64,000 nt of DNA, taken from the NCBI GenBank assembly GCA_964036195.1, contig OZ038456.1, forward strand, positions 27,133,792 to 27,197,791. Direction: 5' to 3'. Under the pieces are notes generated by a model, which made no database searches, had not been told where the DNA came from, and was given only the letters and a program-made list of their open reading frames with translations. Both the position numbers and the translations under genes were made by a program. Positions within the stretch are counted from its first letter, which is position 1. Each line of letters opens with the position of its first letter. The stretch comes from Sphaerolaimus hirsutus (taxonomy: Eukaryota > Nematoda > Chromadorea > Monhysterida > Sphaerolaimidae). Shown one piece after another: positions 1,832 through 56,100 of this stretch.

Positions 1832-1851
1832 CCATCCACCCCCCCCCCCAG

Positions 1852-8000: not shown

Positions 8001-11000
8001 GATTCCAATTCAGAGCTTGCCGACGAATGTCTAACACTACGCATTGTTGGATACTCCTATATTTGGATCATGCCCGCCTTGTACAGTGCACATACCGCAG
8101 TGTTTTTTTAAACAGCACAACCTCATTTGCAACTAGTGATGGAAAAGCGCCAGAAAAAATGGCGCCAGGCGCCAAGGGCGCCATTTTTTCTGGCGCTTTT
8201 CCATCACTACTGGATACGTCCTTGGTCTTATGTGATTAGCACGGTAGAATGTATACACAGTGGGCTACGAGGTTGTAACGCGTCGCAGCAAGTCGAGTGC
8301 GCGGTGGCGCTGCCGGTGAACGTGTTCGAGCTGCTCACGATCCCCAACCACGAGTACCCCATCGTGTGCTGCGGCGTCGCCAAGGGGTGCGTTCGTGGCG
8401 CCCGTCTCTTACAACCGCCTATCCACACCCCCATCTCTGCTGATGGAGATTAAAATGGACTTGTTCTGATCAACTCAAATGCGTTTAAAGCTGATTTATG
8501 AGTTTTCGAAATTTCTTTTGTAAACTAGTGCTTTTACAGCATTTCTGCTAGTAGATAGGCGCCGTTTTTTTCGTCGACTTTTTACCAGAAGTTAACGGCA
8601 TTACCGTGGCTGTCTATAAGCTCCTAATAGTGACTAGAACCCAACCGCCATGTTCTATACGAGGAGTGCGGGTTCGATTCCCGCTAGTTGCAGTGCAATT
8701 TTGCACTCTTTATCTACCGTTCTGTTAGAGGTGCCCCTCTATTGGCAAGTGTCATGCCGTTCTATTAGAGCAACTACGGTATGCGCAAAAGTGACAGATT
8801 GTCCAGGTGCCACTCCCAGACCCTGTAAAGTGTAAAATGTCATGTGAAAGACCCTGTAAAGTGTCATGTGTATCCAATTTGATCGTATCCAAATCTTATG
8901 TTTTTGTATCAATATATTATGTCAAAAAGTAAGATGTGGTAACAAAAACATAATATTTGGATACGATAAAAAAGATTTGGATGCACATGACACTTTACAG
9001 GGCTTTCTACATGACATTTGACACTTTACAGTGCCCTTTACATGGCATTTCACAGGGTCTCTTACATGACAAATGACATTTTACAGGGTCTTTTACACTT
9101 TACAGGGTCTGTGAGTGCCCCCAGAGAAGTCGCACAACACTGTCCCTCCCCGCAGGCAGTCGCGCAAGCTGCTGCACTTCGACACGATCGACTTGAACAC
9201 GGGCAAGCGGCACGTGCACAGCGACGCGCCCGGCCAGGCGAGGCACGGCGCCGCCCTGAACGTCACTGCGCTCAGGCAGATCGCCCCCCAAGTGGTCGTG
9301 GTCTGCTTCAATAGTTGGTTGAGGTTTTGCACGGTGCTCTTTAGAATTGTACTTTTAACGTACGTAAATATACCACAATACCGAGTGTAGGGTTCAAACG
9401 ATATATCGTATCATTCGACCATTTTTTCATATCGAATATCGACATCGAAAATGTTGAAAAAATATCGAATATCGATATCGAAAATTTTTAAAAAAAATCG
9501 AAAATCGAATATCGACCATATTTTCGATATACAGTCATCCCCGGGTTAACGGTAGGGTGGCAGAATTTACCGTACCGTACCGTACCGTACCGCATTTTTG
9601 GGAAAATTACCGTACCGTACCGTACCGTTTACCGCAATTTTAGCAATTTACCGTACCGTACCGCGTACCGCATTTTCCGATATTTACCGTACCGTACCGC
9701 GTACCGCACTCATTTACCGCATTTTAGGCGGTAAATTTTACTCAGATTTACCTGACATTTTTCAACATATTGATGACAATGATGTGCTGTTCTGCTAATT
9801 TTTTTGCGCACAAGTGCGCAATATTCACAACATTGTTTTAACTGATTTTCGGCCCTTTCACATGCTATATTGTTCCCAAATTGCATTCATGCCTTATGGC
9901 TTATTTTCAGCTATTTTATACTATATGCCATTATATACCTATTTTTCAACTATTTAGCAAATTTTCACCTATTTTTATCTATTTTCTCTCTTTTCTTCCT
10001 TCTACACCTTGAAAAAGCCTATATATTGAGCCCCTGCATTGTGGGTAATGTAAATTTATGTCATCACACTGTTATTTTGTTCTTAAGTCCATTATCGAAT
10101 TGTGTAATTGAATGTGGTGTCAATTTATGAAGAAAAAGTTGTATGTAGTCCGGTATTGATACATTTCTGACAATCGGAAATTTACCGTACCGTACCGTAC
10201 CGTACCGCGTACCGCACTTTTCAGATTTACCGTACCGTACCGTTTACCGCAAAATTGAACATTTACCGTACCGTACCGTTTACCGCAAAATAGAAAATTT
10301 ACCGTACCGTACGGTTTACCGCAAGGCCGTACCGTCTGCCACCCTAGTTAACGGTTCCCCCGCTTATCGGGTTCCCCGTGTTAAGGGGTGGAATTCTGCA
10401 AAACGGGGACACGTGAGAACAAAATTCCCCGGATTATAGGTTTCCCCGCATTCCCGGGTTATCGGGTGGAATTTGAAAAAAACGCCTGTCTTTTCATATA
10501 CAAAATGGCTCGATTATAGGGTATTTTTAAGCAGTGAATGAAAATTATCATATAGATTATTAAATTTTTGAATCAAATCAAATAATCGACTATTTTTTAT
10601 CAGATATTCAAAATTCTAAAAAATATAGAATATCGACTATTTTTTCCTATCGGATATCGATCATTTTTTCCTGTTGAATATCGAGCTTCTAAACATTAGA
10701 TCCCCCGGTTATCGGGTTCCCCGCATTATCGGGTGAGTTTTCAAGAATTTCACTCCACCCGACAACCCGGGGATGACTGTATCGAACCTGTATTGTGTCC
10801 CTGAATTGCCCTTAAGCAATTAGGTTATAAGTATGAACTGTGATATCTACCAATTGTTATTTGTCTGATACACTTTGATTCATCATGTTTCTCTGCCATG
10901 TTCTTCTTTTGAGTGATGTAAACCTTGTTAGAATCACTTTTACCATTCACATTTCGGTAAAGAGATGATTAACCATGTGTGCAACCACATGAAAATATGC

Positions 11001-15727: not shown

Positions 15728-16370
15728 TCCCATATTTCCTCGAAATACCCCTTGAATTAATTCCCCTCGAAATACCCCCAGGTGTTTTTTAGCTGAGGAA
15801 AAAATAACCCCCCTCGAAATACCCCCCGTCTGGAATGATGTACATCATGTATGCTATGTACATGACATTGGTCGCAGTTTGCATCGCAGCTACACATATA
15901 CTAGTTTGTGTAGCGATGGGCGTTGATATTTCCAAATATACCCTACTTGGACACGTTGATTACCGGTTTTGGGTATACAAAAGTGTACTCATTACTATGA
16001 ATATCGTGTAAATTTCTTACGAAATGGCCCTACACACACTAGTTTTCACAGTGACTGATGTGAAAACTGAAATGGCCACATGGCCACATCCAGCCTACTC
16101 TTTTTGTATGCTATATGTGTTTTCGTTTTCAAATTTTCAAATGGTAACTTTCATTAATTTCAATTCAAATTTAAATTAGATTAAATCATTGAACCGTGTT
16201 CGTTTACTTGCATTTGAAAAACTTTCAGTTTTCACAAGAAGTCACGGTGAAAACTAGTGTGTGTGGGCACATTAATAGACCCCCTCGAATAACCCCCCCC
16301 TCGAAATACCCCCCTCAAAATTTCCACTCTGAAAAAATAAACCCCGTGGGGGTATTTCGAGGAAATACGG
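15728..16370. mobile_element. TA-inserted MITE, CCGTATTTCCTCGAAATA family, with nested MITE
   Basis: Left CCATATTTCCTCGAAATACC, right TATTTCGAGGAAATACGG followed by TA. The GGCCCTACACACAC MITE at 16026-16270 is nested inside. The left end carries extra bases, so its exact start is uncertain. Confidence 0.7.
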
Positions 16371-16383
16371 TATATATACAATT

Positions 16384-16814
16384 AGGGTTGGAAAAAAAAC
16401 GTTTTTTTTAACTCGATGTTTTTTTTTATAAAAAACGTTTTTTTAAAAGCTCCCAGATATGACCTTGTGTCAACATATATAGGTATATCAGACAGTGGCA
16501 ATACTCTGTGATGTTATATATTACCATATAATGTCTGTGGAGCCATGGGATAGCATTATAAGTGGTGATTTGTGTCAAAAATATCCATTTTTCGTCGACA
16601 TATCGTTTGTATATCGCCTTATAGTTGAATGTTCGTGACTTCAGGTAAAGTTTGGCACGGAATAGTGATCAAACAAGGTTATAGAAGGAGGTTGTTACTT
16701 TGGGAGTGAAGTTACACACTGTGGAGGTACATGGAAGCACATTACCTCAATATTATGTACTACAGCAACATGTGATGGCTTATTAACCCATGGTAGCACA
16801 TAGAAATGGATACT
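16384..16814. repeat. Partial repeat, AGGGTTGGAAAAAAAACG, cut by gap
   Basis: TTAGGGTTGGAAAAAAAACG followed by AAAAACGTTTTTT words; the same sequence recurs at 42400-43080 (CAGTGGCAATACTCTGTGAT). The right end is lost in the 200-N gap. A hAT-like start is possible. Confidence 0.55.
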
Positions 16815-17014
16815 NNNNNNNNNNNNNNNNNNNNNNNNNNNNNNNNNNNNNNNNNNNNNNNNNNNNNNNNNNNNNNNNNNNNNNNNNNNNNNNNNNNNNN
16901 NNNNNNNNNNNNNNNNNNNNNNNNNNNNNNNNNNNNNNNNNNNNNNNNNNNNNNNNNNNNNNNNNNNNNNNNNNNNNNNNNNNNNNNNNNNNNNNNNNNN
17001 NNNNNNNNNNNNNN
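16815..17014. other. Assembly gap (200 N)
   Basis: Exactly 200 N, a placeholder rather than a measured distance. It lies in repeat DNA between the two genes. The left flank belongs to an element repeated at 42.4-43.1 kb. Confidence 1.
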
Positions 17015-20171: not shown

Positions 20172-23100
20172 GTTTTTGGGGTCTGACGTCTTTCTGGGTT
20201 GAATAAAAAACTTGAAAACATGAAAATAATGGATTTATCGGTGACGTTTGATTTGTCGCATCACCTTCTATTTATCGTTATGCTGTAACTCTGGCTTAAA
20301 GGCTATCTTAAATACTTTTTCTGTACTCGAGTACTTTCAAAAAGTATGCCACATATCCTCGAATAACACCACCTCGAACTGCTCCCCTATGTTGGCGAGG
20401 TAAGGAAAGATAACACCCCATTTGAATATCCCCCCTCTTGAATAACTCCCCCTCTGGTTGAAAAAGATGCTGCAAAATTTACAAAAATGATTGATGAAAA
20501 TAGAAAAGAATGTTAACCTTCTGAAAATAGAAAATAATCAATTCTACTCTATGTCATTGCATGCAATCACCTGGCGTAGCTGATTTATCATTTGATTTTT
20601 CTTCAGCTGGCATAAAATTGCAGCGTAAAATCAAAATTTTTGAATTTTCAGAATCAAATAGAAGTGACCGTGGACCCTTGGTCACAATGGAGGTATTGAT
20701 AAACATATTGTCCATGAAAAATTGCAGACCTGTATCATCATTCACTGTCATGTAATCTATTTTGCGATGGAATTTTACGCTGGAATTTTATGTCCGAGCT
20801 GTCATCGCAGCATTTAGAAAAAATACCTACTCCTCGAATAGTGATGTGAAAAGCGCCAGAACTTTTGTGCCAAGCACCAAAAGCGCTACGGCGCTTTTCC
20901 GACCATTAGCGCCAAGCGCCAATGGCGCCAGAGCAAAATGGCACCAAGCGTCATAAGCGCCATTGCGCTTTTTGCTTTGGCGCTAGCGCCAAGCGCCAGC
21001 GCCAGACATTTTGTTCCTGGCGTCGGTCAAAAATAGCGCCAGGCGCCAAAAGCGCCATGGCGTTTTTCATGGGCATGGCGCCAAGCGCCACAGGAAAATA
21101 GCCTTAAGCGCCAAACGCGCCATGGCGCTTTTTGCTTTGGCGCTAGCACCACGCACCGGCGCCATGGCGCTTTTACATCACTATCCTCGAATAACCCACC
21201 TCAAAAAGTTCTGACGTAATAATAACTCCCCTGGGGCCTTATTCGAGGATATACAGTATGTAAAAGGACCTTTTTCAGAGGGAACATAAACATATGTACT
21301 GACTGAGCACTTCTTGTGTATATGTGTTTTGCGAGTAAAAGTGTATACCGTATTTCCACGATATACCCCCTCACCTCGAAATACCACCCTCAAATGGACA
21401 CTATGAGTTTATAAACCCCCCCCCTCGAAATACCCCCCCCCCAAATAAAGTGTATAAAGAACGTAAATGACAAAAGCTACAGTTTGTGATCCGGGAAACG
21501 TAGAACACACGTTAAAAACAATGACTGTGTTATGTTAGAACAGGGTTTGTACCGTCTACGTACCTATAGAGTCCAGAGTTGTTAAAATACCGGTATTTTT
21601 GGAAAGTGTAAGCGTAAGCATAAATACACTCTCCAAATTTTGAGTATGGATACTAAAAGCGTAAGGTATTTTTTAAAATACCTAGGAAAGCGTAAAAAAG
21701 CGTAAGCGTAAATTTTTTTTAGAAAATGCTCTTGCTGTTGAGCATCGCAGAATTGATGATTTAGATGGCTTATTAGACGTATAGACATCGAGTGACGCAA
21801 AAGGATGTGATGGAAAATCACGATGTATTGGCCCCTGGTGGCCTTGATGCTAGCGCCAAAGCGCCTCTTGCGGTGTTTCTGGTGCTCGGTGCCATTCTTT
21901 CTGGCTCCATTGGTGATGGCATTTGGAAAATCACCATGGCGCTTGTCTCTGATTCTATCAGATACAATTTTGATACTAGCAGGGAGGGGGATTGAGATCA
22001 ATGACTACCCCCCCCCCCAATTGGTGACCCCTTGAGTGGTGTGTTGTTATGCCAGCAGGCAAGTTCCTTCCTTCTGTATTTGTGCATCCTTCTGCACAAA
22101 ATGATTATCATCATCACAGAATTTCATCTCAAGTGTTTTTCATCTTGTGCTGACTCATTGTGCTAATTCAGACTCGGTATTGTCGTCTGCGACAATAACG
22201 TCCTCCGAATACAATATCAGCCCCGAAATTCACGTTCTTGTTCACTTTTTTCCCCTCAGTTTTATGCTTTTTCAAACTTTTTACGCTTTCAGTACCCGGG
22301 ATTCAGTATTTCGGCCGAGAAAGCGTAACAAAAGTGTACGGGTATTTTACAAAAGCGTAAGCGTAAGCGTAAGTATAAATACCCATTTACCCGGGTATTT
22401 CGGGTTTTTGATAGAGTCTTATACATGGCGGTTTTTTTTTGCATTTTTCGACGTCTGTGTACGTACTACATTACAGACAACAATTTTGTACAGGGATTTC
22501 AAAAATTTTCTTGCGAAAAAATATTCCCTCCCCCTCGAAATACCCCCCTCGTTTAACCCCCTCAAAAATTTCACTCTGAAAAAATAAACGCCCTGGGGCT
22601 GGGGGTATTTCGAGGAAATACAGTACGTTTTCACAACTAGGTACCTATGTAAAAATGTTTGGCACTGAAAACAAGTCCACATCACCGGTTTTTGTTCTCG
22701 CCGGATGGCATGCTATTTACTTTTCTGAATCAAAAACCCAATCGTGAAGTCATCGTTAATGAAATACAAATTGTTCCAAAAAAGAAGAAACCTTCGTCGG
22801 TTTAAATGAATCCATTAAAAAAAAATATTTTTTTTGTGAAAGTGCATAAAAAAGTATCCCATCGCTCGCGCGTCATCGCCGAAAGCATGAGTAATTTCGG
22901 GCGCATATTTTGCGGTCCGCCTATTATAACATGTTTTATTTACGGTTCACCATTTCACGATCATGCAGAAAGTTAGTCCTGGTTTGGGTTTGAAAAGATT
23001 AGCAAAGGATCTATGCAGAGTGTACGGCTATTTGCTGCGGGTCAGAGTAGGGTGTCAAATTTCCGTTTCCGTTTTCCGTTTCCGCTTTTCCGCGGGAAAA

Positions 23101-26100
23101 TTTTTTACCTTTCCATTTTCCATTTTCCGGAAGCTGAAAATTTTTTACCTTTCCGTTTTCCGTTTTTCGGCAGCTGAAAATTTGTTACCTTTCCGTTTTC
23201 CGTTTTCCGGCAGCCAAAAATTTGTTACCTTTCCCTTTCCGTTTTTCCGGCCCCTTTTCAGTTCTCCGGCTGAAAAATTATTACATTTCCATTTCCATTT
23301 TTCCAGGCCATTTTTCCATTTTCTGGCTCGATTTTCAGTTTTCTGGCATTTTCCATTATTTTTCCAATCTGTATTTATCTTTTTTCACTATGGTGTTTTT
23401 AACTACCAGGTTCTTGTGTCATTCATAATTTTTATGTAAAATATCTATTTATGTTTTTATCTGTAAAAAACACAAAGTAATTTTGGACACATACTTTGCA
23501 GTCTGCTGAGCATACTTTTTACTGTTCAGATACATCAAAGTTCACTTTTGCTGAATTCTTATTGTTGTTGTAGTGTACTTTTGCTACCTTTTGATGATTT
23601 TTTGTTGGTTCAGTTAAGCTTGAACTACAAGTGAAGTTATTGGCATGATTTATAGTTGCAGAATGTACAGCTACCACCAGAGTTGTACAAATACTGGTAT
23701 TTTTAGAAAACGTAAACGTAAACGTAAATACCTTTTCCAAATCAAAAGTATAAATACTAAAACGTAAGGTATTTTTAAAATACCAAGGAATACGTAAAAA
23801 AAGCGTAAACGTAAAAATTTTATATGTGTCGTATTTGCCACTGTGCTTTGGAAAATACCATTATTTTCACCTTTGGATGGGTCAATCGCTGATTTCCATG
23901 ATATCTTCATGTTTTTAGCACTACATGCTCACCATAATCAACAACATGAGTGAGACAACTATTATTATCATTAATTATTAACTAATTATTTTAGCAAATT
24001 TCACAAGCCCATGGCTAAATGGTCACTCTACAGCCACCTTTGTAAGGGGAACAGACAGTGATTTCAGTGCATTGAAACTTTCAAAACTGTTTTTAGTCTA
24101 TTTTGGAAAAACACTCCATATCAAATATACTGTGAAATCTGCCACACCTATCTGAAGAGGGTACCTGGAATTGTGTTGAATTTTGAATCATAATAATGAG
24201 ATTTCTTTCACTATTTTGTTCATTATTTGTTGTCAGTCTATTACAAAATACAGTTACCTATATTCTCTGTGCGGCATTGACTATTGTCGGTAAACAAATG
24301 GTGACTATGTGTCGGAGTTTATAAAATGTTTGAGTTATTGTTTGTAATCATCCTAATCGCTGCACTAAAGTGATCGCCACATTATTATGATGATTTTAAG
24401 TGCTCGACGATCAAAATCTGTAGAGAATTCATAAATACGCAGTTACGTCTGAGGGCGCGGCCCCTAAGAAACTACTAAATATCAGAATTTTTACGTTTTC
24501 CATTGTACCCGGGTATTTTGGTCAGGAAAACGTAACAAAACGTAATGGTATTTTTGGAAAACGTAAACGTAAACGTAAATATAAATACCCGAATAACCAA
24601 GTATTTCGGGTAAACGTAAATACGTTTTTCCAACTCTGGCTACCACAATCAAAGCCAAACCGGCAAACTTGCATGCAGGCTTTCCTCCTGCAAATTTGTC
24701 CATTTCCGTGCAAATTTCACTTTATTTTTTCCATTTCCGTGAAAATTTCGCTTTCTATTTTCCGTTTTCCGGCATTTCATTTTTCTGTTTTCCGTTTTCC
24801 GGCCAATAATTTTTTTTACCTTTCCGTTTTCCGTTTTCCACCGAATGAAATTTTTTTTACTTTTCCGTTTTCCGGCCGAGAATTTTTTTTTACCTTTCCG
24901 TTTTTCGCTTTCCGTAAAGTTAAAAATTTTGACCTTTCCGTTTTCCATAAAAGATTTTTTTGACACCCTAGGTCAGAAGAGACACTGCTGTGTGCTTGAA
25001 AGCAATTGTTTCCATCGCTATTACGATTTGCGGCAGGGTGATCAACATTCTAATACCCATCTACACTGCCTCCATTGGTTTGTACACTGCCCACAAGTAC
25101 CGTATTTGCTTGAATAGTTCCCCCCTTGAATAATCCTCCCCTCGAATAATCCCCCCTGTAAGATGAGTGACGAAATAATAATTCCCCCCATTAAAGATTT
25201 GATTAATTTGTTCTACCTAATTTTAACAACAATGGCACATTATTGTGTTTATAAGGCATGTTTCGGGAAATGAGTTGATGGAAACATGCTTGAAAATTTT
25301 TACGAAATAATAATTCCCCCCTTGAATAATTCCCCCCTCGAATAACCCCCCCCTCAAAAATGTATGACGAAATAATAATCCCCAGGGGATTATTCAAGCA
25401 AATACGGTATTTACTTGTATAGCTGTTTTAAATGCGAATAAGTCGGATTAACAGCACAACGATAAAAAACGTGAAACGACAAATTAAACGTCACCGGTAA
25501 ATCGAAAATTAATGTTCGATTCTCGGATTTGAATGAAAAATTTATCATATGGGAGGTGTTAAATTCAAATTTGAATGAAAAATGTGGTATGAAAAATGAT
25601 CCACCGACAAATCAATTTCCCGTTGACACCCTAAAATCAATTTGTCAGTGATTATTGCATGCATTTTTGATTTTAAAGCGTCAACGTGAGCTTGATTTGT
25701 CGGTGGACCATTTTTCATCCAATGTTTTTCATCCAAATTTGAACTTAACATCTTCCATATGACAAATTTTTCATTCAAATTAATGAGTATTGAACATTTA
25801 TTTTCAATTTACCGGTGACGTTTCATTTGTCGTTTCACCTTTTACTTGTCGTTGTGCTGTAAATTCACCATAAGGATTGACAACATTATCTAATAGAATG
25901 ATCATATGCCATGATGAAACCATGTAATCTGGAACTGAAACAAATTTAATGCAAGACGTGAATAATCTGGAGTTAAATTTTTTAGCAGAACCAAAAAACC
26001 TGTAACCAAAAAATGTTTCAACGCCAAACTACCGTATTACCTAAACTGGTGGAAAATTTAAATGAGAAAATACTTTATTGTATTTTACAAATCCCACATG

Positions 26101-29100
26101 CAAGCTGTTAGGCTTTTATCTCGTGCGAGGGTGCCCCCGAGCATTTATTTACTATATATACCCTAGGGGGCACCCTCCTCAGGCCACCCTTGGTGCAGAA
26201 AAATTTTTTAAAATTTTTTCTGGACAATATAAATGAGATCTCCATACAAATTTTTGTTCCCGGTGAAATTTTAATACTTTTTTTCTGGACATTTGAGACC
26301 AAAAAGTTTTTTTACATTGTTAGATTTTAAGTATGTGCAACTTTTCTACCCCCTCAGAACCCCCAGAACCCCACTTTGTTGTGTAGGGGTAGTGGACTGG
26401 GGGTCAAAATATACCCCAACATACCAGTGGGTCAAAAGATGGCTTTGAGCAAGGCACAAGGAATGTTGATTTTTTGAAAATGCATTAACACAAGTGATTT
26501 GTCAGCACACTAAAAAATAGCTGTACACTTTATAGCAGCTGTATTTCGTGCAGAAACTTGGAAATTCTCATTTTAATTTTCTGGAAAAAAATTGACAAAA
26601 AATGTGTATCAATTTGTATTTGCACCCCCACAATAAATAGCTTTATTTATCTTTACTCACATCGCAGTGGACAGCATGATGGCGGGCCTGGGGGCGGGCC
26701 CAAATGCTGACAATAAATTAGCCTTCCAATGGCAAGTGGTTCTGATTTTTGCCACATTGCGTCTGCTGGGCAGCGCGACATTCGCCGGTGGTGTACTCTT
26801 TGGAATCCGTCTACTCTTCTGGGTAGATGTGGAACAGCACATTTCAGCTACACTGAAGCTAGAGCTTTTTGAGCATCTGCAAAAGCTGCCACTCAGTTGG
26901 CACGTGTCCAGAAAAACTGGGCAGATTGCCAGGTAGGTGATTAGTGTCCATAGGGAATTCGTGTATGCAGATAGGGGTTAGGCGACCAGCTTCACAGGTT
27001 ACTTCTGGAATCTACTCAAAATTTGGTAGATTTCAAGAAAAGTGAAAATATGATTAAACCTCTCTGGGAAAACGTTGAAAAAATAATAGTAAATGCATAA
27101 TTTCTTATTTTCTCTAAAAATTTTAAAAATCACAGAACATCTCTCAAAAATCTCTTGAAATTTGATTTTTTTGCTTATATTTGAAAAATAAAGCTCTCCC
27201 AAACAATTTTCAATATTCTGCGCAACACATAAATACTACAATTGTTACACATTCACAGGGTATTGGACCGCGGTCCATTGTCTACAGTTAACATTCTTAC
27301 AAAATGCACATATATGATAGTAGCAACATTGCTGGATATTTTAATTGCTACAATTTATCTTGCTGTGGCCTTTCATTGGACACTGGCAGTCAATACCGTC
27401 ATGATAATTACCAGTTTCATAGGTAAGTGAGTTTGTCTAGTTTTTGTTATTTTGTTGATTGGGATGACCAGGTGTAGTGATGTAAAAAGCGCCAGACTTT
27501 TGGCGCCATGGCGCTTTTGGCATGCGAGCGCCAAGCGCCAATGGCGCCACAGCAAAATAGCGCCAAGCGCCAAAAGCGCCATGGCGCTTTTCTAGGCCAT
27601 GGCGCCAAGCGCCAATGGCGCCACGGGATGATGGCGCCAAGCGCCAATAGCGCCAGCGCCAAAAAAATATGCTGCATAAAGTGCAGCGATGCAAATGCAG
27701 TGCTATCTATTTGTTTGTCAACTGGTTCCCATCCTAATTCAAAGCTTGCTTGACAAGTAACACTATCCAGTATTGTATACACATATACCATATTTCCTCG
27801 AAATACCCCCTTCAATTACTCCTAGGGTGTCAACAAAAACTTTTTGGCGGAAAACGGAAACGGAAACGGAAAATTTTTGGCACATGCTGGAAAACGGAAA
27901 CGGAAATGGAAAAATTTTTGCACTTGACGGAAAACGGAAAACGGAAAAATGGAAGGCCGGAAAACAGAAACGGAAAAATTTGCTGAAATTATGCCGGAAA
28001 CGGAAAAAATTTGCAGAAATTTTGCTGGAAACAGAAAAAAATTTGCAGAAATTTATCCTGAATAAAAAAAATTTGCAGAAATCTCACTACAAATAGGAAA
28101 AATTCACTTCATTGAGAACCTGCATGCATTTTTATGAGTTTGGCTGAAACAGAAAACAGAAAATTGAGCTGGAAAGTGGAAAAAAGTTGGAAAAACAGAC
28201 AATTGAACCGGAAAATGGAAAAAAGCGAAAAAAATGGAAACGGAAATGGAAAAAAAATTTAGCAGCCGGAAAACGGAAACAGTAACGGAAAACAATTTGC
28301 CTGCGGAAAGCGGAAACGGAAAACGGAAAACGGAAAGTTGACACCCTAATTACCCCCCCCTCGAAATACACCCGCCTGGAATAAGGTAGATCATGTATCC
28401 AATGAACATGATGCATTTATAGCTGCGAATTTACATCGCAGCTATACATGGCATTGTTTATGGAACGAACTATGGTAATATGAACAAAATATATCCTATT
28501 TGGTTATCTAATTACGTTTTGGGTACAAAAAACTATACTTTACTACGACCCTTCATAAAAATTATGGAAGGTACTTCATGCCGGTACTTCATACTAGGGT
28601 GTCAAAAAAATTTTTTTACGGAAAACGGAAACGGAAACGGAAAAAAAATTTTAGCAGCCGGAAAACGGAACGGAAAACGGAAAAAAAATTGCACTTGGCG
28701 GAAAACGGAAACGGAAACGGAAAAAAATTTTTGGTGGCCGGAAAACGGAAAAAGGGGCCGGAAAAACGGAAACGGAAAAATGAAATTTGCATGGAAATGG
28801 AATAATTTGCTGAAATTTTGCCAGAAAATGGATAAAATTTGCTAAAATTTTGCTGGAATTGGAAAAAATTTGCTGAAAATTTGCTGGGAACAGAAAAAAT
28901 TTACATAATTGACAATCTACATGAATTTTTTGCCAGTTTGGATGGAACAAAAAACAGAAAGTTGAGCCAAAAAAAGTAAAATGAGGCGGAAAAACAGAAA
29001 ATTGAGGCGGAAAACGGAAAAAAGGCGGAAAAACTGGAAATTGAGCCGGAAAACGGAAAACAGGCGGAAAAACTGAAATTTTAGCCGGAAAACGGAAAAT

Positions 29101-32100
29101 GAGCCGGAAAAACGGAAACGGAAAAAAAGTGGCCGGAAAACGGAACGGAAAACGGAAAAAAAATTTCAGCAGCCGGAAAACGGAACGGAAAACGGAAAAA
29201 ATTTGCCTGCGGAAAACGGAAACGGAAAACGGAAAACGGAAATTTGACACCCTACTTCATACCACAGCAACAATACAACTTCATTTGCAATATGCAACAG
29301 TATGCATTTGAACGCTCGTCATCAAGCCTTGAATTGGGATGAAAACCAGTTGACATAAAATGTCGTTGAAAACTAGTGCGTGTAGGCCCATTTTTTGGTT
29401 AAAGTTTTGAATATCCTTGCAATTGCATGGACATGGTTTACAAAATAAGCATATAGAGGGTTTGTTCTTCCTGTAACACATTTACTTATGTAACTGATGC
29501 AGGCAAGGTCTTTTTACATAAGAAAAATGATTATTTTATTGTACTACTTGGCGCTTTTTTGGCGCTTTATAAAACACTAGCGCCAAGCGCCAATGGCGCC
29601 ACGACATCATAGCGCCAAGCGCCAAAAGCGCCATGGCGCTTTTCGGTAGCACAGCGCCAAGCGCCAATGGCGCCACAGCAAAAAGGCGCCAAGCGCCAAA
29701 AGCGCCATGGCGCTTTTTGCTTTGGCGCTAGCGCCAAGCGCCAGCGCCATGGCGCTTTTACATCACTAACCAGGTGGTGGTTCAAATCCTGGCAAAAATT
29801 CATCAGTGTTGCTGCAATATTGATTCAGCAGGCATGCCCATCGGCATTTGTTATCATTGGCCCACTGCCAATGTTAACTGCACATAAAGTGCCTGTAGTT
29901 TTTTACAAAATTGATATACCGTATTTCCTCGAAATACCCCCCGGGGGGTGATTGTTTCATAGTGGTCCCGAGAGGGGGGGGGGGGGTTAAACGAGGGGGG
30001 GGGGGTATTTCGAGGGAGGGGGGGTTATTATTTCACAAGAAAATTTTTGAAAATCAAGTACGAAATTGTCGTCTGAAACGTACGCAGACGTCGAAAAATG
30101 CAACAAAAACTGCCATTTATAAGGTTCTGTAGACTAATATTAGTATGTACCGTATTTCCTCGAAATACCCCCCCCCCCTTGAAATACCCCCCCTCGTTCT
30201 ACCCCCCCCCCCCCCTCTCGGGACCAATATTTTCGAATTTTCGAATTTTTTCGGAATTTTCGAATTTTTATTCCACCCCTGGAAAAAACACTTAAAAATC
30301 GATTTTTTTTTGAAAAAATTCGAAAATTCGAAAATTCATAAATTCGAAAATAGTTTTCGGATTTTTCAGGGAATTCAAGGGAAAAAAACACATTCTTAGG
30401 TTCTATATGCTAAATCGATCGATAATTGATACGCGGTGCGTCTGGAAAAGTCTATCGAAACAGAAAAAAACGTCAATGAACTTTGAAATGGTATCCATGG
30501 CGGACACAGCGCTGGAATCAGGGAAGCCATTTTAGGGGGTGGGTCCACCAGACTTTGTGTCGCCACATTCTGTTGCACTCAACCAAATTGTTGATTTTAC
30601 ATGGCAGATCTGGCTAGCTGACTTTGAAGCTTAATAACTCGGTCATTTCTTCGCCGATTTGAACCGTTAAATACTTAAAATGATCTGCAGAACATGTAGA
30701 TTCCATATTTGAGGTTGGATTAGTAATGTATAAATTAATTATACAATTTGACCCAGTATTTCAATGTGTAAAAGAAATTTTTCTGAACATGCCATCATAT
30801 ACTTAATAAAAATACTGTATATCCTTGAATAAGTCCCTGGGGGGGTTATTTGTTGTCAGTAATATTTGTGGGGACTTATTCGAGGGTGAGTTATTTGAGG
30901 TGGACTTATTGAAGGATTTATGGTAAATATGTAGATAAAATGTACAACAGAATGGAATGACACAAAAGTCAGGTGGACCACCCCATAACAGCCACCCACA
31001 ATTCCAGCTATGGGTGGACCCGGTCACATTGAGCAATGTGCAGGAATGCACCAAGGACCCATAACTATTTCAACATAACTACTTAACAGCACAAAGCTCT
31101 TAATTCAATATTTTTGCAAAAAAATTCGAAAAGTATGTAAAAAAATTGGAAAATTACCCAAAAAAATTCGAAAATTGCCCAAAAAGATTCAAAAATTCGA
31201 AAATTCGAAAATTAAATTCGAAATTCGAAATTAAGTTGAGGAAAAATTCGAAAATTCGAAAATTCATTTAGGAAAAAACACTTAAAAATTTAAATCATTT
31301 TTTTCGGAGGGTTTGCCATCGTTACAGAACACACGTTAAAACAATGTCGGTGTCACGTTAGAACAGTGTACATACCATCTACATACTAATATTGGTCTAT
31401 AGAACCTTATAAATGGCGGTTTTTGTTGCATTTTTCGACGTCTGCGTACGTTTCAGACGACAATTTCGTACTTGGTTTTCAAAAATTTTCTTGTGAAATA
31501 ATAACCCCCCCCTCGAAATACCCCCCCCCTCGTTTAACCCCCCCTCTCTCGGGACCACTATGAAACAATCACCCCCCCGGGGGTATTTCGAGGAAATACG
31601 GTACATACTAATATTGGTCTACAGAACCTTATAAATGGCGGTTTTTGTTGCATTTTTCGACGTCTGTGTACGCTTCAGACGACAATTTCGTACTTGGTTT
31701 TCAAAAAATGACTTGTGAAATAACAACCCCCCCTCGAAATACCCCCCCCCCCTCGTTTAACCCCCCCCCCCTCTCGGGACCACTATGAAACAATCACCCC
31801 CCGGGGGGTATTTAGAGGAAATACGGTAAATACTTAATATTTTGATAGGGTATTTACTTCTACGTTTTCCAAAAATATGAGTATTGTAACAACTCTAGAA
31901 TTTTGGATTATTGGGTTTTTATGGTACTCCTGGAATTCAAATGTGTGGGCGCGCGCGCCCGTCTGCGCACGTCAGCTGCGCGTTTTTTACTGTCTGGCGC
32001 TTTTTGGCGGTTTTTAAAAGGCTAGCGTCAAGCGCCAATGGCGCCACCGGATAGCAGCGCCAAGCGCCAAAAGCGCCACGGCGCTTTTTGAAGCACGGCG

Positions 32101-35100
32101 CCAAGCGTCAACGGCGCCAGAGCGTTTTAGCGCCAAGCGCCAAAAGCGCGATGGCGCTTTTTGCTTTGGCGCTAGCGCCAGGCGGCCAGCGCCATGGCGC
32201 TTTTCCCATCACTAGTCGCATTATTAGAGCATTTATGGTATTTGTCATGTTGCACATCATGAATGTACAAATCTATGATCCATGTATACAGGGGTGGGCA
32301 TCTTCAGTTACCGCAGGGAAAATGCGATAGATTGAGCTACGGTTGAGCTAATCGGAATGAAATTTTAACACAATGGAGTAGACTCCATAGGACACCTATT
32401 CTGAAGTTTGCAACCCAAACGGCCACATTTTGGGTGAATTGTGAAACACACGGTTTTTAGTGTAATTTTGTGACTTGGCGTCACCCATAGGATAAATCGA
32501 GGGTGGCATTGAGGGGGGGGGGTCATCGGTCGTTGGTGTCGTCCCATTCTGTAGTACATCGGCCGATTTTGATGCCCTTTGAGTATGTTGTGGTCGGGGC
32601 TACTACCAAATTCTTTTTTACTCGAATAGTCCCCCAGTCCCGAGATAAGGGGGTGAAGTCACAAAATTACACTAAAAACTGTGTGTTCCACAACTCCTCC
32701 AAACTGTGGCCGTTTGGGTTGCAAACTTCAGCATAGGTGTCCTATGGAGTCTACTCTATTGTGTTAAAATTTCATTGTCATAGCTCAACTGTAGCTCAAG
32801 CTATCGCGTTTTTCCAGCGGTAACTGAAGATGCCCACCCCTGTACATTGAAAATTTTAAAAAATGCAACAAAAACCGCCATTTATAAGGTTCTATAGACT
32901 AATATTAGTATGTAGATGGTATGTACACTGTTCTAACGTGACACCGACATTGTTTTAACGTGTGTTCTGCAGTACACAGAAACACAAACTACAGTTATTG
33001 TCCATGTACGTTCCCTTTACACTCAATTTGGGGGGGGGGTATTTCGAGGGGGGGGGGGGGTGATTGTTTCATAGTGGTCCCGAGAGGGGGGGGGGGTCAA
33101 ACGTCGGGGGGGGGGGGGGTATTTCGAGGGGGGGGGGGGTTTCGAGGAAATACGGTAATAAAAATCAACTTCCAGCATTCACACTTGTACTGATGATGTG
33201 GATGGCAAAATCTAGGAAAATGCAGAGTGTATCAGATAATGCATTGGCGACAAAAAGTGTTGATGCACTTTTAAACTTTGAAACAGTCTGTTTGCTTTTG
33301 TTTGTTTGTTTGTTTGTCTTGTTTTGCCATTACTGACAGGGCAGGTGCCACTACTTCTGACAGGTGCAGAAAAGATTTTCACTTCTGCCTTTTTCTATGT
33401 ATCCAAATATACAAATAATTTGGATACATAGAAAGAGAAGTGAAACAAAAAACACCATGGTAATAAATGTTAAAAATACAATTTTGAAAAAAAATTGACA
33501 AATACTGGAAAAAAAAAACAGGAGGTTGAGCTGGAAAATGGAAAATAAGGCAGAAAAAAACAGAAAATTCATGGGAGAACAGGTTTATGAGCTGAAAAAA
33601 TGGAAACAGAAAAAATATTTAGTGGCCACAAATCAGAAAAGGAAAAATTTGCTTTTGGAAAATAAAAAAGTTGAAACTGAAGATGAGATGCAATTATTCC
33701 AAATTTTGTTTCAAATTGAGAATGTTTCAAATTTTCTATTTTTTCCATCATTACAAAACATAATAAGCTATTATAAATGCAGTCATTTGCAGGTGAAATA
33801 CTTTGCCAATGATGAGTGGGAAGCAAAGCGGTATCAAAGTGCAATCAATGAATTGCAGGTTCAAAGTTCCATGCTTTTGAATTCAAAGTTAACCCATTCT
33901 GAACAAATATTTTCACATATCCCAGGGGTGGGAAAGTCGATGTAATAATCAGTATATTGCAATGCAAATGTGTGCAATCAATAGTGATGGCAATTGGTCT
34001 TCTGCTAGGCACAACAATTTGTGTCTACTTCACAATGAAGCACATGCATGGTTTCATCACTGGGCACCTTCATTGTGTTTTTTACACTTATACAGCAACT
34101 CTTTGGTCCATTTGAACATCTTTAGTCTGCTTTTTGTGTGAGTTTCTTCATACTTTTCCCTGTGGATGTGGCTAAATGAACACTTTTGTAAGGGACAGGC
34201 TTCTACGCATATGTGCCCGGCTAGTGATGTAAAAAGCGCCAGACTTTTGGCGCCAAGCGCCAAAAGCGCCATGGCGCTTTTCCGGAACTAGCGCCAAGCG
34301 CCAATGGCGCCACAGCAAAATGGCGCCAAGCGCCAAAAGCGCCATGGCGCTTTTCTGGGCCTTAGCGCCAAGCGCCAATGGCGCCAGGGGGCCATGGCGC
34401 CAAGCGCCAATGGCGCCAGGGGGCCATGGCGCCAAGCGCCAATGGCGCCAGCGCCAAAATGATATTGTCTTTAATGATACAGGTGAGACAAAGCACTATT
34501 TTCGTCACTTTCAATAACTTGTATTGCCTCCAAAAAGACAAAAATGGTCAAATAATGGAAATCAATAAGGTTTCTTGCTCAACACACAAGTGTAACTAAT
34601 ACTGGTTCAAATAGATAGCAAATTGCCTCTCTGAAGTGGTAGAAGCTGAAAGATTGTCTGGGGGTTGGGGGTTGCAGCATTTCAATCTATTGGATATCTC
34701 AAGATTTAAAGTGCAAACTGAGATAACAGGTTAAAAAAAGCTAAATTACATACTGTATTTCCTCGAAAAACCCCCCGGGGGGGGGGTGATTGTTTATGAG
34801 TTAGAATTTTGAGGGGGGTTAAACGAGGGGTGGTATTTTCGAGGGGGGCTTATTATTTCGCCAGACATTTTTTGAAATTCCAGTACTAAATTGTAGTACG
34901 CAGACGTAGAAAAATACAACAATAACCGCTATATATAAGAGTCTATTGACTTATTTAAGTGTGTAACACTGTTCTAACGTAACAATTCATTGTTTGAAAC
35001 GAGTGTTTTGCATTGCCCGAATCACAAACTGAAGTTTTGTCATGTATGTTCTCTGTACACTCAATTGGGGGGGGGGGGGGTATTTCGAGGGGATGGGTAA

Positions 35101-47100: not shown

Positions 47101-50100
47101 GGGGAACTATTCAAGCAAATACGGTACTTGTGGGCAGTGTACAAACCAATGGAGGCAGTGTAGATGGGTATCAGAATGTTGGTCACCCTGCCGCAAATCG
47201 TAATAGCGATGGAAACAATTGCTTTCAAGCACACAGCAGTGTCTCTGACCCGCAGCAAATAGCCGTACACTCTGCATAGGTCCTTTGCTAATCTTTTCAA
47301 ACCCAAACCAGGGGGCAGTTCCGCAAGTGGAAAAGTTAAGAGTTAAAAGTTAAGAGTAGAGTAAAATGACAAATGGCAAGTAAAGAGTAAAGTTAAATGA
47401 TAAATGATGAGTTAAGAGACAAGAGTAAATTTAAGAGCAAAGTTAAATGACAAATGATTAGTTAAGAGATAAAAGTAAATTTAAGAGTCAAACAAGTGTA
47501 TCCAAATTTTATTTTTTGGTATCCAGATCTTACGTTTTTGTATCCAAATCTTATGTTCTCTCATAAGATTTGAATACAAAAACATAAGATCTGGATACGA
47601 AAAATAAGATTTGGATACACTTGCTTGACTCTTAACTTTACTCTTATCTCTTAACTAATCATTTGTCATTTAACTTTACTCTTGTCTCTTAACTCATCAT
47701 TTATCATTTAACTTTACTCTTAACTTGCCATTTGTCATTTTACTCAACTCTTCACTTTTAACTCTTAACTTTTCCACTTGCGGAACTGGCACCAGGACTA
47801 ACTTTCTGCATGATCGTGAAATGGTGAACCGTAAATAAAACATGTTATAATAGGCGGACCGCAAAATATCCGCCCGAAATTACTCATGCTTTCGGCGATG
47901 ACGCGCGAGCGATGGGATACTTTTTTATGCACTTTCACAACAAAAAATATATATTTTTTTAAATGGAGTCAGGTAGAAGCGACGAAGGTTTTTTTCTTTT
48001 TTGGAACAATTTGAATTTCATTAACGATGACTTCACGATTGGGTTTTTGATTCAGAAAAGTAAATAGCATGCCATCCGGCGAGAACAAAAACCGGTGATG
48101 TGGAGTTGTTTTCAATGCCAAACATTTTTACATAAGTAACTAGTTGTGAAAACGTACCGTATATCCTCGAAATACCCCCAGGGCGTTTATTTTTTCAGAG
48201 TGAATTTTTTGAGGGGGTTAAACGAGGGGTTATTTCGAGGGGGAGGGAATATTTTTTCGCAAGGAATTTTTTGAAATCCCAGTACAAAATAGTTGTCTGT
48301 AATGTAGTACGTACACAGACGTCGAAAAATGCAAAAAAAAAACCCCGCCATGTATAAGACTCTATCAAAAACCCGAAATACCCGGGTAAATGGGTATTTA
48401 TACTTACGCTTACGCTTACGCTTTTGTAAAATACCCGTACACTTTTGTTACGCTTTCTCGGCCGAAATACTGAATCCCGGGTACTGAAAGCGTAAAAAGT
48501 TTGTTTACAGGGGGGAGTTATTCGAGGGGGGGAGTTATTCGAGGGGGGGGGGACTTATTCGAGGATTTACGGTATACGTCTAATAAGCCATCTAAATCAT
48601 CAATTCTGTGATGCTCAACAGCAAGAGCATTTTCTAAAAAGAATTTACGTTTACGCTTTTTTTACGCTTTCCTAGGTATTTAAAAAATACCTTACGCTTT
48701 TAGTATCCATACTCAAAATTTGGAGAGTGTATTTACGCTTACGCTTTCCAAAAATACCAGTATTTTAACAACTCTGGACTCTATAGGTAAATACATAGAC
48801 GGTACAAACCCTGTTCTAACATAACACAGTCATTGTTTTAAACGTGTGTTCTACGTTTCCCGTATCGCAAAAACTGTAGCTTTTGTCATTTACGTTCTCT
48901 ATACACTTTATTTTTTTTGGGGGGGGGGTATTTCGAGGGGGGTTATAAACTCATAGTGTGCATTTGAGGGGGGTATTTCGAGGGGAGGGGGTATATCGAG
49001 GAAATACGGTACACACTTTTACTCGCAAAACACATATACACAAGAAGTGCTCAGTCAGTACATATTTATGTTTATGTTCCCTCTGAAAAAGGTCCTTTTA
49101 CATACTGTATATCCTCGAATAAGGCCCCAGGGGAGTTATTATTACGTCAGAACTTTTTGAGGTGGGTTATTCGAGGATAGTGATGTAAAAGCGCCATGGC
49201 GCCGGTGCCTGGTGCTAGCGTCAAAGCAAAAAGCGCCATGGCGCTTTTGGCGCTTAAGGCTATTTTCCTGTGGCGCTTGGCGCATGCCCATGAAAAACGC
49301 CATGGCGCTTATGGCGCCTGGCGCTATTTTTGACCGGCGCCAGGAACAAAATGTCTGGCGTTGGCGCTTGGCGCTAGCGCCAAAGCAAAAAAAGCTTATT
49401 ACGCTTGGCGCCATTTTGGCGCTTGGCGCTAATGATCGGAAAAGCGCTGTAGCGCTTTTTGCGCTTGCCACAAAAGTTCTGGCGCTTTTCACATCACTAT
49501 TCGAGGAGTAGTTATTTTTTCTATAAATGCTGCGATTACAGCTCTGGATATAAAATTCCAGCGTAAAATTCCATCACAAAATAGATTACGTGAAAGTGGA
49601 TGATGATACAGGTCTGCAATTTTTCATGGACAATATGTTTATCAATACCTTCATTGTGACCAAGAGTCATCGTCCACGGTTACTTCTATTTGATTCTGAA
49701 AATTCAAACATTTTGATTTTACGCTGCAATTTTACGCCAGCTGAAGAAAAATCAATCGATAAATCAGCTACGCCAGGTGATTGCATGCAATGACATAGAG
49801 TAGAATTGATTCTTTTCTATTTTCAGAAGGCTCACATTCTTTTCTATTTTCATCAATCATTTTTGTAAATTTTGCAGCATCTTTTTCAACCAGAGGGGGA
49901 GTTATTCAAGAGGGGGGATATTCAAATGGGGTGTTATCTTTCCTTACCTCGCCAACATAGGGGAGCAGTTCGAGGTGGTGTTATTCGAGGATATGTGGCA
50001 TACTTTTTGAAAGTACTCGAGTACAGAAAAAGTATTTAAGATAGCCTTTAAGCCAGAGTTACAGCATAACGATAAATAGAAGGTGATGCGACAAATCAAA

Positions 50101-53100: not shown

Positions 53101-56100
53101 TGGTGGGGGGGGGAGGCAAACTGGCTGCAACAGAAACACTTTAAGCAATAAACGCGATACACATGGCCTTAAAGTGTTTATCAATTGGCAAGCGCGCAGT
53201 CGCACATGCATGAGCACATTTCTGCTCGCGGAAACGCTTGCTCAAAGGGTTTACCAAAATCATAAACACATAGGCGCATTCTTGTTAAAGTGTTTGCCAT
53301 TTGTAAACGCGCGATTAAAGGGTTTCCATGACCATAAGCGGGGAGGGTTGTGTTGTGTGTACATAAGCCCACACATGACACTGGCTGCGGCAAACACAAA
53401 GGCCAGAGAACAGTGGTAATAAGCGAGAACAATGCTTTGTCCTTTGTATTGGGCCCACACACACTAGTTGACATCGCAAATTCGCGTCAACTCAGTGTCA
53501 ATTAAATAAAACAAGAAGTTTGTAAAAAGCATCACACTTAACAGGAACAATGAAAATGATCGAAGAGTCATGATGTAAAATTAACTATGCTCTATCAGAT
53601 AGATAAGTTGAAATCACAGTATCACTTAAATTCAGTTGACATTCAGTTGACACGAATTCAGTTGACATCCAGTGTGTGGGGGCCCATTCTGCCACCACTA
53701 CCATAATAGGTTTATGTGAAAAGTCACAAATCTTCAATTTTTCTGACAAAATAATAACCCCCTCCCCCCTCAAATAAGCCCACCCCTAGAAATACCCCCT
53801 AAAAAAATCGATTATCTGATGAAATAATAAAGCCCCCCTCAATTGAAAATGTGATTTAAAATAGGAATGTCTTGTCCCTTGACTTCTCAGTCAACTGAAA
53901 AAAATCGAAAATTTAATATTTTTTCAGTTGACCAAGAAGTCAAGTGACAATACATTTTAAATGACATTTTCATAAATCGATGCCATGTCAAACAGAATGT
54001 AAAATGTGGGGGGTGTTGTGGGGTATCCGATCACAAGCCCCGCACGCACATACCCCCGGCACACACATGGTGCGGCACGCACATAGCACCAGTTATGTGC
54101 GGACCGGGCTTTTGTGCAGGCCGGGATTCATTATGTGCGGGCCAGGCGTATGTGCGGGCCAGGCATATGTGCGTAGAAGTGCACCTTTTTTTGTAGAAAC
54201 ATGTTATCTTATTTAAATGGCCTTGTCTGTAATGGTGATATTGGTATTGGACAAATTAAAACTGCCTTAGCTAAAAAGTGCACCCATTCATTTTCAATTG
54301 ATTTCATTCTTGTAATCAACTATGCAGTTGAGTAATTTTCCTGTAGAATGTGCTAAGCTCTAAAATGATAACTGAAATTTTGGTGTCATTTGCAAAATTT
54401 CAGTATTTTAGCTATTAAGAAATGTTTGGCAAAGTTTGTTTGTATGAGGCAATTTATCTCCAATGCTATCTGTATATTTAAATAAACATAATAAATATAT
54501 ACACTCACCCAAATTAATACATGGGCCTATTGACTCATTGAGCACTCTGAGAATTTTAATCCCAGTAACATCCTTTTCCTCAAATTCAGCGAGATGTACC
54601 AGGGACTAGCTGACATAGAGGACATGTTTGATTTTCTGGATGAACAAGTCCAGGTAATGTAAAATCCTGTAAAATTCATTGACAAATTCATTATTTCACT
54701 CTTATTTGTCATTATGCTGAAAGTCCTTCCTAATGCACTAATGCAGGTTTTGGATGCCATTGATGCAAAACCATTCAAATTCAAAGATGGTAGAATTGAG
54801 TTCTGCAATGTCAACTTTCACTACAACCTGGAGCATCTTCTGTTAAGGGATATCTCATTCACAGTCCTTCCAGGAACATCTGTGGCAATTGTTTGTTCAT
54901 CTATATTTTTGAAAACTGGAAAAGTGCCAACATCACCTTCTAAGTGCTAACAAATGCCTTGCACACATTTTCCACAGGTCGGTCCAACTGGCAGTGGAAA
55001 GAGCACATTGATCAGACTGCTATTCAGGTTCTATGATGCGTGTGGAGGCAAAATTCTGGTAGATGGGCAAGACATCACCAAGGTGAAGGTGCACAGCCTC
55101 CGGAGGCATATCGGTGTTGTGCCACAGGACACAGTGCTTTTCAATGACACAGTCAGGTGAGCTTGTTATGGTAGCAAGCAGGTCTCACTCTCAATTGAAC
55201 ATTCATTTGTGGCAAGGTGTGCTGAGTGTGCCCTTGTGTTGAGCTGAACCATAGGTCAAATGAGGTGCAACTGTGAATATGTATACCGTATTTCCTCGAA
55301 ATACCCCCCGGGGGGTGATTGTTTCATAGTGGTCCCGAGAGGGGGGGGTTAAACGAGGGGGGGTATTTCGAGGGGGGGGGGGTTATTATTTCACAAGAAA
55401 ATTTTTGAAAACCAAGTAGGAAATTGTCGTCTGAAACGTACACAGACGTCGAAAAATGTGACAAAAACCGCCATTTATAAGGTTCTGTAGACTAATATTA
55501 GTATGTAGATGGTATGTACACTGTTCTCACGTGACACCGGCATTGTTTTCACGTGTGTTCTGCAGCAGAGTTGCGAAAGTGTATTTACACTTACCCGAAA
55601 TACCCGGGTAAATGGGTATTTATATTTACACTTACACTTACACTTTCATAAAATACCCATACACTTTTTTTACACTTTCCTAAGCAAAATACCCGGGTAC
55701 AGAAAGTGTATTTTTTTCTTTCAGATGGCCCTGTTTTATGCTTTTGAGAAAGCATAAAATAGGGTCATGTACAAAAAATAACTGCACAGTGCACACATGC
55801 AGTTATGCATTGAATGTAGAAAATATGGCAAATGTACAAACTGGCCTTTGATCTCCAACCTTTGATCAGTACTCATGGTATTATACAGTTCCATCATACT
55901 TTTGTAAAAAGGACAAGATCAATGGAAATTCACCAGCTAGACACAAAGTCAACTGGCTTTTGCATTGACATTTGCTGCATGTCCAATCTTGCATTTAAAC
56001 AGTGTGTATCGCATTGCTTAATCAGTAAATATCAACACTGAAAAAGTGCCATTATTAGTGAACTGCATACCACTACAGTATTTGCTACAGTCTGAAATGT

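What the first reader, a model, noticed from the sequence alone, without database searches (positions are those of the whole stretch)
23040..24978. Transposon in a coding exon whose ends form in-frame GT and AG: a candidate newborn intron
Seen: a 1.9 kb TAGGGTGTCAAA element lies in an ABCB6-like exon that is uninterrupted in haplotype 2. The duplicated site starts and ends with G, so the junctions read AGA|GTAGGG and a T-rich tract then CCCTAG|GTC. Splicing there joins GTC AGA to GTC AGA AGA GAC, keeping frame with three extra residues. Known: elements that bring splice sites at their ends (introners) create introns in several eukaryotes. Inference: a TAGGG...CCCTA element with an 8-bp duplication becomes removable whenever the target starts and ends with G; the GTTAACGG insertion at 9553-10346 meets the same rule.
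Basis: partly seen in the sequence, partly recalled or inferred. Interest (0 to 1): 0.85.

Follow-up and report, generated by a model that had tools for sequence, protein, structure and literature searches.

The report
Jumping gene inside an animal exon
One copy of an animal transporter gene carries a cut-and-paste transposon whose edges happen to read like intron ends, but the splice signals are ordinary, the other gene copy is interrupted too, and nothing yet shows that the element is removed from RNA.

Summary
The sequence observation is largely right. A 1,923-bp element (E4, 23048-24970) with perfect 12-bp inverted ends TAGGGTGTCAAA sits in an ABCB6-like coding exon of haplotype 1, with GGTCAGAG and a slightly altered second copy at its sides. 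The junctions read GT...AG, in frame. E4 is a hAT-type insertion that itself carries a nested one.

Three things weaken the newborn-intron claim. (1) Haplotype 2 is not uninterrupted: its copy of the exon holds a different, palindromic 480-bp insert 65 nt upstream. (2) The splice signals are unremarkable: of 1,522 simulated E4 insertions into this gene, 91% offered an in-frame GT-AG pair and 22% one at least as good; pairs that do not give an open frame score higher at the real site, and stronger acceptors lie inside E4. (3) The GTTAACGG example lies inside another transposon.

A better in-frame donor lies 6 nt upstream, in the target duplication. Exonic TAGGG-ended elements spliced as introns are reported for maize Ds; introners for many eukaryotes. 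No RNA evidence was available. Best reading: an ordinary recent insertion that probably disrupts the allele, partial splicing possible. The unexpected point is that both haplotypes carry an insert in the same exon.

The parts
22963..25077 (+). ABCB6-like exon A of haplotype 1 (from in-frame ATG to the assigned donor ATTG|GTTTGT), interrupted by E4; whether the 5' end is a start codon or the acceptor ATGCAG|AAAG is not settled
   Evidence: coding start inferred
23040..23047 (+). left target-site duplication GGTCAGAG; holds the candidate donors CGG|GTCAGA (23041) and AGA|GTAGGG (23047)
23048..24970 (+). E4: non-autonomous hAT-type element, TIR TAGGGTGTCAAA 12/12, pyrimidine-rich TTTTCC/TTTCCG repeats at both ends in the same orientation
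23678..24638 (+). second hAT-type element nested in E4 (CAGAGTTG ends, 961 bp, TSD GCTACCAC 8/8)
24971..24980 (+). right duplication GGTCAGA plus a 3-nt in-frame addition AGA relative to haplotype 2
47147..47811 (-). exon A of haplotype 2 (contig 3), itself interrupted by the palindromic insert
47312..47791 (-). 480-bp palindromic insert in haplotype 2 exon A; predicted RNA hairpin -332 kcal/mol; superfamily not determined
47243..47250 (-). empty E4 target site in haplotype 2 (GGTCAGAG)
26668..34140 (+). further ABCB6-like exons of haplotype 1 on contig 2 (B 26668-26932, C about 27260-27418, D 33176-33285, E 33793-33858, F from 33953 with three one-base insertions)
   Evidence: boundaries by hand, approximate
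54555..59245 (+). ABCB6-like exons on contig 4, mostly of the nucleotide-binding domain, read as the continuation of haplotype 1
   Evidence: outer bounds approximate
27823..28348 (-). E5, relative of E4 in opposite orientation (TIR TAGGGTGTCAAC 12/12, TSD ATTACTCC/ATTACCCC) between exons C and D of haplotype 1
28595..29254 (-). E6, relative of E4 in opposite orientation (TIR TAGGGTGTCAAA 12/12, TSD CTTCATAC 8/8) between exons C and D of haplotype 1
9553..10346 (+).

Best explanation
E4 is an ordinary, recent, non-autonomous hAT-type insertion in the 5' coding exon of one allele of an animal ABCB6-like half-transporter gene. Its GT and AG ends follow from the TAGGG/CCCTA termini meeting a target that starts and ends with G, a coincidence expected for about 6% of exonic sites. 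The most likely effect is disruption: transcripts that keep E4 meet a stop codon 129 codons into it, or join an upstream donor to one of the strong pyrimidine-preceded acceptors inside E4. Precise in-frame removal may occur at a minor level, more plausibly from the duplication's own donor (CGG|GTCAGA to CCCTAG|GTC, which restores the reading apart from one extra arginine) than from AGA|GTAGGG. Shown: element, duplication, nesting, empty site, in-frame options. Inferred: all RNA behaviour.
For: hAT-type marks and relatives: TIR, 8-bp duplications and subterminal repeats. Read-through stop at 23437. The best pair near the ends that does not give an open frame (3.6) beats the best in-frame open pair (1.6), and internal acceptors score up to 8.9. 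In-frame pairs are common in simulation: 90.8% of 1,522 have one and 16.8% one at least as strong as the best observed. None of the 11 donors assigned in this gene reads GTAGGG. E5 and E6 lie between exons C and D, not at splice junctions. Haplotype 1 exon F carries three one-base insertions.
Against: The gene was under purifying selection while the haplotypes diverged (dN 0.0073, dS 0.0446, 298 codons), and haplotype 2 is interrupted too, so some route to a working mRNA may exist. The right flank's extra length is exactly one codon. The candidate donor (top 8.7% of GTs in the window) and acceptor (top 11.4% of AGs) are within the range of the gene's own assigned sites. 3 of 6 TAGGG elements have a duplication that meets the rule on one strand, P 0.013, post hoc, small n. 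The exon F indels may be consensus errors, because one-base insertions in haplotype 1 are locally dense there (9 in 1,073 aligned columns against 6 in the other five blocks, 4,491 columns).
Confidence: 0.6

Rival explanations
1. Newborn intron: the spliceosome removes E4 efficiently at its borders (donor AGA|GTAGGG or CGG|GTCAGA, acceptor CCCTAG|GTC), so the haplotype 1 allele stays functional and E4 works like an introner.
For: GT-AG and frame verified; the two donors score 0.6 and 2.0, the acceptor -0.3, within the ranges of the gene's assigned donors (-5.2 to 8.0) and acceptors (-11.7 to 5.4). Selection on the gene. Precedents in print.
Against: Stronger competing sites, including acceptors inside E4; in-frame options arise easily by chance; none of the 11 donors assigned in this gene reads GTAGGG; three one-base insertions in exon F.
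Confidence: 0.2
2. The locus is decaying: both copies of the exon are broken by different inserts (E4 in haplotype 1, the palindrome in haplotype 2) because the gene copy is dispensable or another copy covers for it.
For: Insert in each haplotype's exon A; exon F indels in haplotype 1.
Against: The other exons compared are open in both haplotypes, with low dN relative to dS (exon F left out); contig 4 exons read open.
Confidence: 0.12
3. The inserts are cut out of the RNA without the spliceosome, by the animal SOS-splicing pathway in which transposon inverted repeats trigger excision and RTCB rejoins the mRNA; far likelier for the haplotype 2 palindrome than for E4.
For: The haplotype 2 insert folds as a hairpin of -332 kcal/mol, z -44; end-to-end pairing 132 inter-arm pairs against 37 for E4. 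The pathway is described in animals (a review and a citing paper only).
Against: E4 has only 12-bp inverted ends, its subterminal repeats are direct, and its left 300 nt fold no better than shuffles, z -1.1. No RNA data; the original paper was not held.
Confidence: 0.08

Closest known systems
Maize Ds/Ds1 (hAT) insertions in exons that are spliced as introns (Dennis 1988, Wessler 1991, Giroux 1994: titles seen in the PMC3260210 reference list; texts not seen)
   Same: TIR (C/T)AGGG..., 8-bp duplication, element in a coding exon, splice sites at or near the ends
   Different: By those titles Ds splicing was seen in the message; Ds1 donors lie 12, 22 or 33 bp from the terminus (PMC5432752, passages), here the candidates are in the duplication and at the very edge; plant, not animal
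Introners (Gozashti et al. 2022, PMC9860276: outline with abstract, sections 6, 7 and 11, and passages seen)
   Same: DNA-transposon ends and duplications supplying splice sites; Aureococcus introners add codons (4 bp of element plus an 8-bp duplication)
   Different: Introners are called as families of similar introns; here one exonic copy, two relatives between exons, no RNA support; median family lengths there are 30-654 nt, E4 is 1,923 bp (954 without the nested element)
hAT-derived MITEs / non-autonomous hAT elements
   Same: 8-bp duplication, short TIR, subterminal repeats, no coding capacity recognised
   Different: Subterminal TTTTCC/TTTCCG repeats run in the same direction at both ends; family not identified
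SOS splicing of DNA transposons from animal mRNAs (Zhao et al. 2026; seen only through PMC13247085 and PMC13155455 passages)
   Same: DNA transposon in an animal mRNA; haplotype 2 insert is a strong inverted repeat
   Different: E4 pairs weakly end to end; no RNA evidence

Membership tests
hAT superfamily (non-autonomous) | 8-bp target-site duplication | tested here: met
   E4 7 of 8 plus a 3-nt addition, explained by the empty site; nested element 8 of 8; E1, E2, E3, E6 8 of 8, E5 7 of 8
hAT superfamily (non-autonomous) | short TIR beginning C/TAGGG | tested here: met
   12 of 12 for E4; Ac/Ds TIR C/TAGGGATGAAA in PMC3260210. The nested element begins CAGAG, not C/TAGGG
hAT superfamily (non-autonomous) | mobilised by a hAT transposase | not tested
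   stop-to-stop ORFs in E4 reach 179 aa and look repeat-derived by eye; no transposase search was run and the host genome could not be searched
Introner | element is spliced out of mRNA | not testable with these tools
   no transcripts; no close relative of the protein among the 120 listed, 41-47% identity
Introner | splice sites at or beside the element ends, frame kept | tested here: met
   but common by chance
Introner | multiple copies of the family at intron boundaries | tested here: inconclusive
   window only: 3 family copies (E4-E6), none at an established splice junction; 0 of 11 assigned donors GTAGGG; whole genome unreachable
Ds-type exonic insertion spliced as intron | TAGGG-type ends, 8-bp duplication, within a coding exon | tested here: met
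Ds-type exonic insertion spliced as intron | RNA evidence of removal | not testable with these tools
   no RNA held
SOS splicing substrate (E4) | strong inverted-repeat pairing of the insert ends in RNA | tested here: inconclusive
   z -1.1 for the left 300 nt; 37 inter-arm pairs of 150, no shuffle control for that number, and the pathway's threshold is unknown to me
SOS splicing substrate (haplotype 2 insert) | strong inverted-repeat pairing of the insert ends in RNA | tested here: met
   -332 kcal/mol, z -44; 132 inter-arm pairs of 150
SOS splicing substrate (either insert) | RNA junctions lacking the insert | not testable with these tools
   no RNA held

The most novel reading that the evidence does not exclude
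One animal carries two different DNA transposons in the same coding exon, one per haplotype, 65 nt apart, and the gene survives because each is removed from RNA by a different route: E4 by the spliceosome through splice sites made by its target duplication, the palindrome by inverted-repeat-triggered SOS splicing. That would be a natural side-by-side test of how tolerance of exonic transposons starts, and of whether RNA-level removal precedes true intron gain.
Probability: 0.06. Interest if true: 0.8.

Novelty: new member of a known kind. Interest (0 to 1): 0.33.

Why it matters
How introns arise is a long-standing question, and young, still-polymorphic candidates in animals are, to my knowledge, rare (not searched). 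If E4 is spliced, it catches the first step in one individual with the empty site on the other haplotype. If it is not, it is a caution: for an element like E4 in an exon an in-frame GT-AG solution can nearly always be found (90.8% of 1,522 simulated insertions), so sequence-only claims of newborn introns need RNA.

Tried and rejected
Rejected: haplotype 2 as an intact comparator; the GTTAACGG element as a second exonic example (nested in E2); contigs 2 and 3 as a true inverted duplication (contig 2 and contig 4 ends overlap; not fully excluded). Led nowhere: PDB search with the 65-aa exon peptide (no hit); N-terminal ABCB6 exons (in the profile search no match lying wholly before model position 230 had E below 4); species identification (protein hits 41-47%); a paper search for introners together with hAT (0 papers); the papers PMC45394 and PMC12779559 were not held. 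Paper searches were made; apart from the papers named in this report I saw only their listings.

Weak points of my own tests: the splice matrices use frequencies recalled from memory (human-like), not trained on this animal; exon boundaries were set by hand, and donor C|D and the acceptors of exons G and K were not scored; the exon C lookup failed, so its counts were replaced (exon C included, exon F left out because of its indels). The simulation used 7 coding pieces (A, B, D, F, G2, H, K), from 30 nt inside each to 38 nt before its end, both orientations. One search took the palindrome shifted by one base.
Full report
What the window is. The 64 kb are four contigs separated by 200-N gaps at 16815-17014, 35320-35519 and 51960-52159. 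Contig 3, reversed, is collinear with contig 2 in blocks of 85-99% identity, most of them 92-95%, broken by many insertions. The end of contig 2 and the start of contig 4 share 190 aligned columns with no substitution and four one-base gaps, in G and A runs. I therefore read contigs 2 and 4 as haplotype 1 and contig 3 as a misplaced alternative haplotype (haplotype 2); a true inverted duplication is less likely but not excluded.

The gene. Exons spread over 22963-59245 encode an ABCB6-like half transporter. The protein joined from them hits solved ABCB6 structures, best E 1.9e-158, with alignment from residue 16, inside exon A. Of the 120 proteins listed, those that carry an organism name are animals; identity is 41-47%, so no close relative is listed and the species stays unknown. 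Between the haplotypes 298 aligned codons show 14 nucleotide and 5 amino-acid differences, dN 0.0073 and dS 0.0446 (exon F left out because of indels).

The element. E4 (23048-24970) has TIRs TAGGGTGTCAAA, 12 of 12, and duplication GGTCAGAG. The right copy carries a 3-nt in-frame addition relative to the empty site in haplotype 2. It contains a nested 961-bp element with CAGAGTTG ends and a perfect 8-bp duplication GCTACCAC; without it E4 is 954 bp. Two relatives, E5 and E6, lie between exons C and D of haplotype 1 in the opposite orientation; that stretch is 5,749 bp long against 601 bp in haplotype 2. Six TAGGG...CCCTA elements with 8-bp duplications (at most one mismatch) were found in the window. 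These are the marks of non-autonomous hAT-type elements; the label rests on ends and duplications, as no transposase was searched for.

Check of the premise. Only the E4 target is. The same exon in haplotype 2 holds a 480-bp insert at 47312-47791, after nucleotide 20 counted from the shared ATG and 65 nt before the E4 site. It is almost a perfect palindrome: predicted RNA fold -332 kcal/mol against a shuffle mean of -88. If exon A starts at the ATG or at the acceptor ATGCAG|AAAG, this insert lies in coding sequence; the in-frame acceptors downstream of it score poorly (-9.2 and -10.4). That coding status is inferred, because the profile match begins only at LAKDL.

Splicing options. AGA|GTAGGG...CCCTAG|GTC is present and in frame. 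With matrices recalled from memory the donor scores 0.6 (top 8.7% of GTs in the window) and the acceptor -0.3 (top 11.4% of AGs); eleven donors assigned in the gene range from -5.2 to 8.0, eleven acceptors (one uncertain) from -11.7 to 5.4. By the simpler recalled Shapiro-Senapathy scale the donor gets 64.7, and 20.6% of 3,557 GTs do as well or better. The duplication itself offers a better donor, CGG|GTCAGA at 23041 (score 2.0), whose product restores the empty-allele reading except for one extra arginine.

Controls. I inserted E4 in silico across seven coding pieces of the gene, both orientations, 1,522 insertions. In 27.1% the best pair was in frame and open; at the real site it is not (1.6 against 3.6). 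Five acceptors in E4's 5' third score 3.9-8.9, made by its TTTTCC-type repeats, so inclusion of part of E4 in the message is the more likely error. Read-through meets TAA at 23437. The G......G rule holds for 51 of 845 exon 8-mers. For fairness: 3 of the 6 TAGGG elements meet the rule on one strand (E3, E4, and E6 on the minus strand) against 9.4% expected, P 0.013, a post hoc count on a small set.

State of the haplotype 1 allele. Exon F has three one-base insertions relative to haplotype 2, which together return to frame without a stop but replace about 48 residues of a conserved membrane stretch. One-base insertions in haplotype 1 are dense in that block (9 in 1,073 columns; 6 in the other five blocks, 4,491 columns), and the contig overlap shows one-base gaps in homopolymer runs, so consensus error is possible. 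If real, the allele is damaged whatever happens to E4.

Comparison with what is known. Ac/Ds elements have TIRs C/TAGGGATGAAA and 8-bp duplications (PMC3260210, passages). That paper's reference list names work on Ds1 acting as an intron in Adh1-Fm335, Ds1 being alternatively spliced from exon sequences, and de novo synthesis of an intron by Dissociation; I saw titles only. Ds1 donors sit 12, 22 or 33 bp from its terminus (PMC5432752, passages). A review lists transposon insertion as a proposed mechanism of intron gain, including duplication of AGGT (PMC3443670, passages). Introners are reported in 175 of 3,325 genomes, with several ways of recruiting splice sites from duplications, one adding four codons (4 bp of element plus an 8-bp duplication), and in only two groups among animals and land plants (PMC9860276, abstract, sections 6, 7 and 11 and passages). 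Amoebophrya introners carry inverted and direct repeats (PMC7789003, passages). A separate animal pathway, SOS splicing, removes transposons from mRNA, with RTCB rejoining the pieces (PMC13247085, passages); a citing paper says that TIRs trigger this spliceosome-independent mechanism (PMC13155455, passages); the original paper was not held. The haplotype 2 palindrome fits it far better than E4 (132 against 37 inter-arm pairs of 150).

Verdict. A newborn intron is possible (about 0.2) but not favoured by the sequence; an ordinary disruptive insertion is more likely (about 0.6). The unexpected point is that both haplotypes carry an insert in the same exon, which makes allele-specific RNA from this animal worth looking at.

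Noticed in passing
window 47312-47791 (-): 480-bp near-perfect palindrome in haplotype 2 exon A with a 5-bp CCTGG repeat at its edges; a related palindromic sequence lies at about 39211-39605.
   Followed up: partly
window 35133-35319 and 52160-52348: Contig 2 end and contig 4 start are the same sequence apart from four one-base gaps (three in G runs, one in an A run): an unmerged overlap with an alternative-haplotype contig scaffolded between them.
   Followed up: yes
window 33953-34140: Exon F of haplotype 1 has three one-base insertions relative to haplotype 2, in a block where such differences are dense; consensus error or allele decay.
   Followed up: partly
window 23678-24638: Second hAT-type element with AAACGTAAACGTAAA-type repeats nested in E4, duplication 8 of 8; so E4 is not the latest insertion at this site.
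   Followed up: yes
window 1-16814: Contig 1 appears to hold exons of a MAP4K-type kinase with a citron-homology domain (recognised by eye from the ORFs, from memory, not searched).
   Followed up: no
window 3657-4166: Another TAGGG-ended element (510 bp, TSD ATCTCAAC 8/8) with a different TIR, TAGGGTTCAAAC, also found at the left end of E2 at 9388-11187.
   Followed up: no
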